Assembly (NCBI GenBank): GCA_020852055.1
Contig: JADZBP010000090.1
Coordinates: 1 to 49,994 of the forward strand
Direction of reading: 5' to 3'
Origin: Candidatus Latescibacterota bacterium
GTDB lineage: Bacteria; Latescibacterota; UBA2968; UBA8231
DNA length: 49,994 bases
Part shown: positions 28,214-30,006 of the stretch, piece by piece
Numbering within the stretch: position 1 is the first letter of the stretch
Layout: each line of letters begins with the position of its first letter
The notes under the pieces: generated by a model
The model's input: only the letters and a program-made list of their open reading frames with translations
Database searches by the model: none
What the model was told of the DNA's origin: nothing
Made by a program: the position numbers and the translations under genes

Positions 28214-28702
28214 ATGGCCAGCGCCCACGACTTCACCCTCGACGACATCACCGGCAAACCCCTTGCCCTCAGTAGCCTCCAGGGCAAGGTGCTGCTGGTG
28301 GTCAACGTGGCCTCGCAGTGCGGCTATACCAAGCAGTACCAGAATCTCGTCGCCCTGCACGAGCGTTATGCCAGCCGGGGGCTCCTGGTGCTTGGTTTCC
28401 CGGCCAACAACTTCGGGGCGCAGGAGCCGGGCACCAATGCCGAGGTCGCCCAGTTCTGCAGCACCAAATTCGGCGTCGCCTTCCCCATGTTCGCCAAGGT
28501 CTCGGTGAAAGGCGCCGACCAGCACCCGCTCTTCGCTTACCTGACCTCGGCGGCCAACCCGGACTTCACCGGCGACATCGAATGGAACTTCGAGAAGGCC
28601 CTCGTCGGCAAGGACGGCCGTCTGCTGCGCCGTTTTCGCAGCGCCGCCCTGCCCGACGGCCCCGAGATCACCGCCGCCGTGGAGCAAGCCCTCGCTAGCT
28701 GA
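28214..28702 (+). CDS. Glutathione peroxidase-family (thioredoxin-type) peroxidase
   Basis: A 162-aa thiol peroxidase. The peroxidatic cysteine is C36 (NVASQCGYT), with Q70 (GAQEPG), W124 and N125 (EWNFEKALV) completing the catalytic tetrad. The common FPCNQF segment reads FPANNF, so its cysteine is lost. C82 in QFCSTKF sits where the resolving cysteine of two-Cys thioredoxin-dependent GPx proteins is found, so electrons probably come from thioredoxin rather than glutathione. No signal peptide. AAGGAG lies 8 nt before the ATG. The next gene follows after 14 nt and may be cotranscribed. Confidence 0.94.
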   Translation: MASAHDFTLDDITGKPLALSSLQGKVLLVVNVASQCGYTKQYQNLVALHERYASRGLLVLGFPANNFGAQEPGTNAEVAQFCSTKFGVAFPMFAKVSVKGADQHPLFAYLTSAANPDFTGDIEWNFEKALVGKDGRLLRRFRSAALPDGPEITAAVEQALAS

Positions 28703-28716
28703 GAGGAGGTCCAGCG

Positions 28717-30006
28717 ATGGACAGTCCCGCAGTACTGGCGCTCCTCTACGGCTTGGTCGCCGGCGTCGCCCTGCCCCTGGGGTCGATCGCCGCCGGCCTG
28801 TGGCGGTTCAAGGAGCGGACCGTGGCGGCGATCACCGCCCTGGGGGCCGGGGCGCTGCTGGCGGCCCTCACCCTCGACCTGGTCAGCGAACAGCTGCACA
28901 AGGGGGAGTTCTACACCCTGGCCGTCGGCTGCCTGCTGGGCGGGTTGATCTTCGAACTGCTCAACCAGGTGGTCAACGATCACGGCGGTTTCCTGCGCAA
29001 GACCGCCACCACCTTTGCCCACCTCCGCAAACAAAAACTCCAGACCTTCAAACAACTGGCCCGCAAACTGAGCCAGGTGCCCCTCCTGCAGCAGCTGCCC
29101 CCCGAGGAGGTGCGCGCCATCCTGCCCTTTGTCACCCGGCGCTCGTACCGCAAGGGCACCACCCTGTTCCGCCAGGGGGAGCCGGGCGACAGCCTGATCA
29201 TCGTCGAACGGGGTCAGGTGGAGATTGTCGATGTGCGCGGCGGGGGCCGCATCGTGGCGACCCTGGGGGAAAACGAGGTGGTCGGCGAGATGGCCTTGCT
29301 GACGGGCGAACCGCGTTCGGCCATGGCCCTGGCAGCCACCGATCTGAAGATCTGGCTGATCCTCAAGGAGGATTTCGACCGGGTGCTCGAGACCTCGCCC
29401 CACCTGGCGGCGGCGGTCAAGGTGCTGGTGGCCGACCGGCTGGCCGACATGCAGCGGCAGCACACCATCGACCCCGAAAGGGCCGCCGCCTGGCAGGAGC
29501 GGGCGCTGCACCACCTCGACGAGCGCCACGTCATCCTCACCGCCACCGACATCAAGGAAGCGGCGGTGGTGCACAACGGAGCGCCGATGGCGATCTGGCT
29601 GGGGGCGCTGCTGGACGGCATCCCCGAATCGCTGGTCCTGGGCGCCAGCATGTTGCACGCCTCGGTAAGCACCTCGCTGATCGCCGGCATCTTCCTCTCC
29701 AACTTCCCCGAGGCGCTTTCCAGCTCGGCCGGCATGCGCGAGCAGCACCATCCCTTGGCCAAGATCCTGTGGATGTGGACCTCGCTGATGCTGGTGTCCG
29801 GGGCCGGCGCCTTCCTGGGGAATCTGCTCTTCGCCGAGGCCCCGCCCTACCTTTTCGCCCTGATCGAGGGGGTCGCCGCCGGGGCCATGCTCACCATGGT
29901 GGCCGAGACCATGTTGCCCGAGGCCTACCACAAGGGCGGCGCCGTCACCGGCCTGTCCACCCTGGTCGGCTTCCTGCTGGCGATCTTCTTCAAGACCCTG
30001 GAGTAA
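28717..30006 (+). CDS. ZIP-like metal transporter with an inserted cyclic-nucleotide-binding domain
   Basis: A 429-aa membrane protein with an unusual architecture. Residues 5-90 carry three hydrophobic helices. About 120-245 form a complete cNMP-binding (Crp-like) domain with the phosphate-binding cassette GEMALLTGEPRSA (E191, R200, S201). Residues about 290-428 carry the remaining helices. TM4 and TM5 have ZIP-type metal motifs in modified form: LLDGIPESL (D300, E304) and LSNFPEALSSS (N329, E332); a later AETMLPEAY is also ZIP-like. GAGAGGAGG precedes the ATG. It suggests divalent-cation flux gated by cAMP, c-di-AMP-like or another nucleotide. Ligand and ion are unknown. Confidence 0.82.
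   Translation: MDSPAVLALLYGLVAGVALPLGSIAAGLWRFKERTVAAITALGAGALLAALTLDLVSEQLHKGEFYTLAVGCLLGGLIFELLNQVVNDHGGFLRKTATTFAHLRKQKLQTFKQLARKLSQVPLLQQLPPEEVRAILPFVTRRSYRKGTTLFRQGEPGDSLIIVERGQVEIVDVRGGGRIVATLGENEVVGEMALLTGEPRSAMALAATDLKIWLILKEDFDRVLETSPHLAAAVKVLVADRLADMQRQHTIDPERAAAWQERALHHLDERHVILTATDIKEAAVVHNGAPMAIWLGALLDGIPESLVLGASMLHASVSTSLIAGIFLSNFPEALSSSAGMREQHHPLAKILWMWTSLMLVSGAGAFLGNLLFAEAPPYLFALIEGVAAGAMLTMVAETMLPEAYHKGGAVTGLSTLVGFLLAIFFKTLE

What the first reader, a model, noticed from the sequence alone, without database searches (positions are those of the whole stretch)
28717..30006. ZIP-like transporter interrupted by a cyclic-nucleotide-binding domain
Seen: three N-terminal helices, a complete cNMP domain with GEMALLTGEPRSA, then the remaining helices with DGIPES and NFPEA motifs in ZIP TM4/TM5 positions. 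The insertion occupies the variable loop between helices 3 and 4, where ZIPs carry a His-rich loop. Inference: nucleotide-gated divalent-metal transport. It sits 14 nt downstream of a thiol peroxidase, hinting at a redox-metal connection.
Basis: partly seen in the sequence, partly recalled or inferred. Interest (0 to 1): 0.6.

Follow-up and report, generated by a model that had tools for sequence, protein, structure and literature searches.

The report
Metal transporter with built-in nucleotide sensor
A bacterial membrane transporter of the zinc/iron (ZIP) kind carries, inside the loop that joins its fixed and moving halves, a domain of the sort that binds the messenger cAMP, which suggests that the cell's messenger level directly switches metal uptake.

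Summary
The 429-aa frame at 28717-30006 is a divergent 8-helix ZIP transporter split between helices 3 and 4 by a cyclic-nucleotide-binding domain (CNBD; Pfam E 3.6e-23). Pfam's ZIP model scores below its cut-off, but a profile of helices 4-8 finds only BbZIP in the PDB (E 1.8e-11 to 5.2e-11) and puts DGIPES and NFPEA on its metal-binding motifs. It is not an assembly accident: full-length fusions with the same loop length (189-195 residues) occur in at least 8 genomes outside the window's phylum. In 15 of 15 single-CNBD fusions the two classic cNMP-contacting residues (Glu191, Arg200) are invariant, although only 6 of 129 CNBD columns are. The metal-site Asp300 and Glu332 are also invariant. 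A clade around Thiomicrorhabdus has two CNBDs in the same loop and has lost these residues (Glu 0 of 26 domains, Arg 1 of 26). BbZIP's helix 3-4 loop joins scaffold to moving elevator and holds a zinc-sensing brake. Best explanation: the CNBD replaces that brake with a cNMP switch. Gating, ligand and metal are untested. The redox link rests on a glutathione-peroxidase-family neighbour found only within the genus. Verdict: a real, new variant of a known kind.

The parts
28717..30006 (+). ZIP-CNBD fusion gene, 429 aa
28732..28977 (+). TM1-TM3 (residues about 6-27, 34-56, 64-87); Asp54 at a position that is Asp/Glu in all 28 fusions and 3 ZIP-only relatives
   Evidence: hydropathy; site table; boundaries approximate
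28984..29070 (+). GGFLRK motif at the end of TM3 and long basic linker helix (residues 90-118)
   Evidence: alignment; helix in model; 8 K/R and 1 D/E in residues 88-122
29068..29454 (+). cyclic-nucleotide-binding domain with its C-terminal helix (residues 118-246; Pfam core 141-226)
29284..29325 (+). phosphate-binding cassette GEMALLTGEPRSAM (190-203), Glu191 and Arg200 invariant
29455..29577 (+). post-CNBD linker (247-287) with invariant Trp259, leading into TM4
29578..29649 (+). TM4 (about 288-311) with DGIPES (300-305), aligned to BbZIP His177-Asn178-x-x-Glu181
29668..29730 (+). TM5 (about 318-338) with SNFPEA (328-333), aligned to BbZIP Gln207-Asp208-x-x-Glu211
29758..30000 (+). TM6-TM8 (about 348-370, 378-400, 408-428); Ser361 at BbZIP Glu240, Glu397 at BbZIP His275
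   Evidence: residue match read from the alignment
28214..28702 (+). glutathione-peroxidase-family gene 14 nt upstream, probably the same operon
   Evidence: PF00255 E 2.2e-38; conserved in the two other loci of the genus examined

Best explanation
A ZIP-family divalent-metal importer under direct allosteric control by a cyclic mononucleotide, most likely cAMP. The CNBD sits in the cytoplasmic loop between TM3 (fixed scaffold half in BbZIP) and TM4 (moving elevator half, carrying metal ligands), taking the place of the zinc-sensing brake loop of ordinary ZIPs. Proposed mechanism: the empty CNBD and its rigid linker helices hold TM4 relative to TM3; nucleotide binding at Glu191/Arg200 folds the C-terminal lid helix, which runs on through the Trp259 linker into TM4 and frees or locks the elevator stroke. 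I favour nucleotide relieving inhibition, about 60:40. Shown: the architecture, its conservation, and invariance of cNMP contacts and of the core metal residues. Inferred: binding, gating and its sign, the metal (an oxygen-rich site without His suggests Mn2+, Fe2+ or Mg2+ as readily as Zn2+), and import direction.
For: CNBD E 3.6e-23. A partly confident model of the segment (mean pLDDT 69.8) matches cAMP/cGMP-binding domains in the PDB, best E 1.6e-11. ZIP fold: profile to BbZIP, E 1.8e-11 to 5.2e-11; ZIP-only relatives to E. coli ZupT, probability 96%, E 3.9e-9; tblastn to annotated 'ZIP family zinc transporter' genes. Glu191 and Arg200 kept in 15 of 15 single-CNBD fusions while only 6 of 129 CNBD columns are invariant and median pairwise CNBD identity is 36%; L180 and L181 also keep both (read by eye). 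Loop length 189-195 in 15 of 15. Asp300 and Glu332 in 28 of 28 fusions, Glu304 in 26 of 28. Eight class III cyclase matches in the genome. In BbZIP TM3 and TM4 belong to different moving halves and L(3,4) is a zinc-sensing inhibitory loop (PMC9873690 passages; PMC10256678 passages and Discussion).
Against: No binding or transport data. Pfam ZIP is below its curated cut-off for the window and for all relatives scanned, and the ZIP-only profile A3 found nothing in the PDB. Several BbZIP metal ligands are changed (His177 to Asp, Asn178 to Gly, Asp208 to Asn, Glu240 to Ser), so BbZIP's second metal site looks lost. The Thiomicrorhabdus-order clade keeps the architecture without nucleotide contacts, so the loop domain can serve without cNMP. 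The full-length structure prediction failed (mean pLDDT 49.7).
Confidence: 0.6

Rival explanations
1. A working ZIP transporter whose CNBD binds no cNMP (or another ligand such as c-di-GMP) and acts as a structural, dimerising or differently sensing cytoplasmic domain.
For: In the Thiomicrorhabdus-order clade 26 CNBDs in 13 proteins keep Glu in 0 and Arg in 1, yet the two-CNBD architecture is retained in 14 of 62 species, one with an internal stop.
Against: Both contacts are invariant in all 15 single-CNBD fusions, the window included, amid 36% median identity. On the tree of the membrane part the two-CNBD clade lies among single-CNBD rows (97/96), so its state looks derived.
Confidence: 0.2
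2. A metal-sensing receptor or transport-dead protein: the membrane part binds metal but does not carry it, and the CNBD is its output or input.
For: Metal-site residues are substituted against BbZIP, and Glu304 is Gly in 2 of 28 fusions (L019, L074).
Against: No effector domain is attached. The membrane part keeps all 8 helices and its conserved carboxylates, and ZIP-only relatives with the same DGxPES and N-x-P-E motifs exist as stand-alone proteins.
Confidence: 0.12
3. The gene pair is a redox-metal operon: the transporter supplies Mn2+ or Fe2+ for defence against peroxide together with the GPx.
For: GPx lies 14 nt upstream in the window and is next door in L001 and L003. Three of 12 annotated plasmid loci of ZIP-only relatives lie next to methionine sulfoxide reductase genes (all loci).
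Against: No GPx in 16 of 16 fusion loci from elsewhere, several cut by contig ends. Their neighbours look unrelated (read by eye). L161 and L166 are sister rows, so they are one case rather than two.
Confidence: 0.2
4. Assembly or gene-calling artefact: two genes run together.
For: The window comes from a fragmented genome (333 contigs), and one close relative (L003/L018) has a broken frame.
Against: The same joined frame is seen in many genomes, among them a named isolate record (Thiomicrorhabdus) and near-complete genomes, with fixed loop length and purifying selection.
Confidence: 0.01

Closest known systems
BbZIP (Bordetella bronchiseptica ZIP; PDB 5tsa, 8j1m, 8ght, 7z6m, 6pgi)
   Same: Helices 4-8 align over 134 positions (E 1.8e-11 to 5.2e-11), including the P-E cores of TM4 and TM5. 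L(3,4) is the regulatory loop in BbZIP and the site of the CNBD here.
   Different: BbZIP's loop carries a zinc sensor (DXXXPHXH). Here a CNBD sits there and no such motif is seen in the window sequence (read by eye). Ligands changed: His177 to Asp300, Asn178 to Gly301, Asp208 to Asn329, Glu240 to Ser361.
Uninterrupted ZIP-only relatives (e.g. Deinococcus taeanensis WP_225523609.1, Rhizobium sp. BG4 WP_203431459.1)
   Same: About 39-51% identity over TM4-8 in the listed ZIP hits; same motifs in L059, L060 and L075 (DG[IV]PES, NVPEG).
   Different: Loop of 13-17 residues in L059, L060 and L075 instead of 189-195; no CNBD.
SLC9C1 (sperm Na+/H+ exchanger)
   Same: A solute carrier with a CNBD whose transport is shifted by cAMP (PMC6052114, abstract).
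   Different: Other transporter fold; it also has a voltage sensor; not a metal carrier and no homology claimed in the membrane part.
Prokaryotic CNBD-gated channels (MloK1/Mll3241, SthK)
   Same: Homologous CNBD: SthK E 3.1e-11, MloK1 CNBD from E 7.1e-13; structural match.
   Different: K+ channels with a C-terminal CNBD (recalled), not one inserted in a carrier loop.
CNNM metal transporters with a CNBH domain
   Same: A metal transporter with a cNMP-binding-fold domain; very weak Pfam echo for relative L180 (E 0.1, below cut-off).
   Different: Different membrane domain; that CNBH domains do not bind cNMP is recalled, not tested here.

Membership tests
ZIP (Zrt/Irt-like) metal transporters | Significant profile match to the family | tested here: inconclusive
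   Pfam PF02535 16.9 bits against a cut-off of 35.1 and no ZIP model in NCBIfam; but the profile of TM4-8 matches only BbZIP in the PDB, E 1.8e-11 to 5.2e-11, and relatives reach 34.6 and 31.9 bits
ZIP (Zrt/Irt-like) metal transporters | Eight core TM helices with a long cytoplasmic loop between TM3 and TM4 | tested here: met
   Hydropathy and charge, helices of the low-confidence model, loop position in the alignment with ZIP-only relatives
ZIP (Zrt/Irt-like) metal transporters | Conserved metal ligands of TM4 and TM5 (xxPE motifs) | tested here: inconclusive
   P-E cores kept: Glu304 in 26 of 28 and Glu332 in 28 of 28 fusions. His177 is Asp in all 28, and Asn178, Asp208 and Glu240 are replaced in the window
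ZIP (Zrt/Irt-like) metal transporters | Transport of a divalent metal | not testable with these tools
   needs uptake assay
cNMP-binding domain proteins | CNBD fold and profile | tested here: met
   PF00027 81.8 bits over the 27.5 cut-off; Foldseek matches
cNMP-binding domain proteins | Phosphate-binding cassette with Glu and Arg contacts | tested here: met
   Glu191 and Arg200 align with CRP's cassette Glu and Arg in the profile alignment; a direct BLASTP of window against CRP was not informative
cNMP-binding domain proteins | Measured cNMP binding | not testable with these tools
   needs ligand-binding assay

The most novel reading that the evidence does not exclude
A family of metal transporters gated directly by a cyclic nucleotide, in which a second-messenger sensor has replaced the metal-sensing brake at the scaffold-elevator joint, so that the cell's signalling state, not only its metal level, sets metal uptake. 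In one clade the sensor was duplicated and became blind to nucleotides, taking a new signal.
Probability: 0.45. Interest if true: 0.75.

Novelty: new variant of a known kind. Interest (0 to 1): 0.62.

Why it matters
Metal uptake in bacteria is usually described as controlled by metal-responsive transcription and by metal feedback on the carrier (general knowledge). A cNMP switch placed between the two moving halves of an elevator carrier would link second-messenger signalling straight to metal entry, and would offer a natural, ligand-controlled ZIP in which the gating of the elevator can be tested. In five full-text searches of the held library whose terms paired ZIP or transporters with cyclic nucleotides or cNMP I found no paper describing a ZIP with a CNBD. 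I judged from listings only, and subscription papers are mostly missing, so this is not proof of absence. CNBDs on MFS carriers and on SLC9C1 are in print.

Tried and rejected
Artefact of assembly: rejected. Plasmid spread of the fusion: of 291 plasmid records with a match none covers 80% of the protein. Viral contigs: 45 pattern stretches, none a relative. ZIP membership by whole-fusion profile against ZupT failed (probability 12.8%, only an internal-repeat echo); the ZIP-only profile A3 found nothing in the PDB, while A2 (TM4-8 of fusions and relatives) did. A direct BLASTP against CRP was useless. The full-length structure model was too poor to use (mean pLDDT 49.7), so no fold search was run on it. 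GPx as a conserved partner: rejected beyond the genus. One origin of the fusion: 27 of 28 fusions form one branch (92/88, not starred); including the long-branched L074 is not rejected (p 0.373), so a second origin is neither shown nor excluded.

Full report
What is there. The frame 28717-30006 (+) encodes 429 residues. Pfam finds a cNMP-binding domain at 141-226 (E 3.6e-23) and a sub-threshold ZIP match at 278-421 (16.9 bits, cut-off 35.1). Hydropathy gives three hydrophobic segments before and five after the domain. Residues 88-122, just after TM3, hold 8 Lys/Arg and 1 Asp/Glu, in line with a cytoplasmic loop. The gene 14 nt upstream is a glutathione-peroxidase-family protein (PF00255, E 2.2e-38).

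Is the membrane part a ZIP? Pfam alone does not settle it, so three further tests were made. A profile of helices 4-8 (9 sequences, A2) against all PDB chains finds five distinct sequences at E up to 10, all BbZIP, at 1.8e-11 to 5.2e-11, and aligns DGIPES and SNFPEA with BbZIP's TM4 and TM5 motifs. Uninterrupted relatives compare with E. coli ZupT at 96% probability, E 3.9e-9 over 217 columns. tblastn on plasmids gives 291 records; of the 20 listed, 19 match within residues 254-429 and 10 of these are annotated as ZIP transporters, while one (H15, E 8e-8) spans 141-354 and carries other annotations. Against: a profile of three uninterrupted relatives alone found nothing in the PDB, the whole-fusion profile did not align properly with ZupT, and NCBIfam has no ZIP match. 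I conclude a divergent ZIP clade.

Metal site. BbZIP's eight binuclear-centre residues are M99, H177, N178, E181, Q207, D208, E211 and E240 (PMC9873690, passages). From the alignment the window has D300, G301, E304, S328, N329, E332 and S361 in place of the last seven (S361 read by eye; M99 could not be aligned). Over 28 fusions: Asp300 28, Glu332 28, Glu304 26 (Gly in L019 and L074), Asn329 27. Position 54 (TM2) is Asp or Glu in 28 of 28. So BbZIP's second metal site is probably gone and the first is oxygen-rich with no His. That Mn2+, Fe2+ or Mg2+ may be carried as well as or instead of Zn2+ is inference.

The nucleotide site. Profile alignment of the CNBD in all fusions and CRP: Glu191 and Arg200 align with the Glu and Arg of CRP's phosphate-binding cassette, and both are kept in 15 of 15 single-CNBD fusions. 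Only 6 of 129 CNBD columns are invariant among these 15 (G166, G190, E191, R200, F220, R241), with median pairwise identity 36%. That the two columns whose role is known from CRP and PKA (recalled) are both among the six would happen by chance with probability about 0.002 if all columns were alike. Two further fusions found later, L180 and L181, also keep both (read by eye). A model of residues 100-286 (mean pLDDT 69.8) matches cAMP- and cGMP-binding domains, best E 1.6e-11, with 627 PDB matches at E up to 0.001. The window's own genome has 8 class III cyclase matches over the cut-off, so a cNMP supply is plausible.

How widespread. In 64 genomes of the phylum: 6 intact full-length fusions (G000, G054, G006, G018, G027, G028), one cut by a contig end (G055), one with a broken frame (G053) and a 53-residue end piece (G056). 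Records L001-L003 name the group as Candidatus Latescibacterota/Handelsmanbacteria. In 386 genomes drawn as relatives, which include phylum members, 8 outside the phylum have it full length: G178, G131, G312, G301, G231, G279, G245 and G419, from 7 families; at most 4 candidates a genome were scored, so this is a lower bound. In the order of Thiomicrorhabdus, 14 of 62 genomes have a two-CNBD form, one with an internal stop. In 369 Gammaproteobacteria 2 have a fusion; in 349 Pseudomonadota only the centre genome itself. In two small phyla, 1 of 9 and 3 of 7. A search of the same 386 genomes with TM4-8 alone gives 18 matches at 159 bits or more, then a 53-residue contig-end fragment of the same family (79.6 bits, G056), then ordinary ZIPs at 61 bits and below. 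Of the 18, 16 lie in fusions or fusion fragments and 2 (G234, G370) are uninterrupted ZIPs. In the window's genome the fusion is the only match of this search, and PF02535 finds no ZIP at E 0.001.

Geometry and history. From the end of the GGxxRK motif to 12 residues before DGIPES the loop measures 189-195 residues in 15 of 15 single-CNBD fusions, 371-394 in 13 of 13 two-CNBD fusions and 13-17 in 3 of 3 uninterrupted relatives. A fixed length over such divergence speaks for a mechanically coupled domain rather than a loose passenger. On a tree of the membrane part (50 rows, 250 columns) 27 of 28 fusions form one branch (92/88). The two-CNBD clade (100/100) lies among single-CNBD rows inside a starred group of 20 (97/96), and phylum members are scattered among rows from other phyla, which suggests transfer or old paralogy. 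L074 is a long branch of unsure place. Between the window and L001 dN/dS is 0.136 overall and 0.136 in linker plus CNBD. In the two-CNBD clade Glu is kept in 0 of 26 and Arg in 1 of 26 domains, so nucleotide sensing was probably lost there.

How it most likely works. In BbZIP TM4 and TM5 belong to the moving domain and TM3 and TM7 to the scaffold (PMC9873690, passages), and loop L(3,4) is a zinc sensor that folds back and inhibits uptake; mutating its histidines raises zinc accumulation (PMC10256678, passages and Discussion). Here the CNBD is inserted in exactly that loop, its C-terminal lid helix running through a short linker with invariant Trp259 into TM4, which bears metal ligands. Hence the proposal that nucleotide binding controls the elevator stroke. 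The architecture and the conservation are shown; binding, gating and its sign, the metal and the direction are inferred.

Neighbourhood. The GPx gene is next door in the window and in L001 and L003, all one genus, and absent from 16 of 16 fusion loci from elsewhere, some of them short. Among 13 plasmid loci of ZIP-only relatives fetched, one without annotation (L167) and one without an annotated gene at the match (L168), 3 of the 12 annotated ones lie next to msrA or msrB (L161, L162, L166). A redox theme is possible but not established.

Literature. Six searches were made. CNBDs on MFS carriers are mentioned in a review (PMC10710835, passages) and SLC9C1 is a cAMP-modulated exchanger (PMC6052114, outline with abstract). 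No listing showed a ZIP-CNBD protein. Verdict: real and conserved, a new variant of a known kind, with function inferred.

Noticed in passing
L004 (4995-6833), L035-L046: ZIP fusions with two CNBDs in tandem in the same loop, in the order of Thiomicrorhabdus; all have lost the cassette Glu and all but one domain (L044, second CNBD) the Arg, so what they sense is unknown.
   Followed up: partly
L175 (1468-3108): A 547-aa protein with an N-terminal CNBD followed by a sodium/calcium-exchanger membrane domain (PF01699, E 8.1e-13). Similar matches in frames of 346-564 aa occur in 5 other genomes of that phylum. Another possible cNMP-controlled cation carrier.
   Followed up: partly
L161, L162, L166: Uninterrupted ZIP relatives on plasmids lie next to methionine sulfoxide reductase genes (msrA/msrB); the Acinetobacter one (L161) also lies beside an aminoglycoside resistance gene.
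   Followed up: partly
L003 5001-6288 and L018 (same contig): Fusion gene of a close relative with a broken frame around residues 200-284: sequencing error or decay; not resolved.
   Followed up: no
L019, L074: Two fusions in which the TM4 metal-ligand Glu (304) is Gly; L074 is also a long branch that may be a separate fusion event.
   Followed up: partly
L009 (G000:C49:35894-36334) and many genomes: CNBD matches inside very long open frames (about 1000-1500 aa) recur across the phylum; their partner domains were not examined.
   Followed up: no
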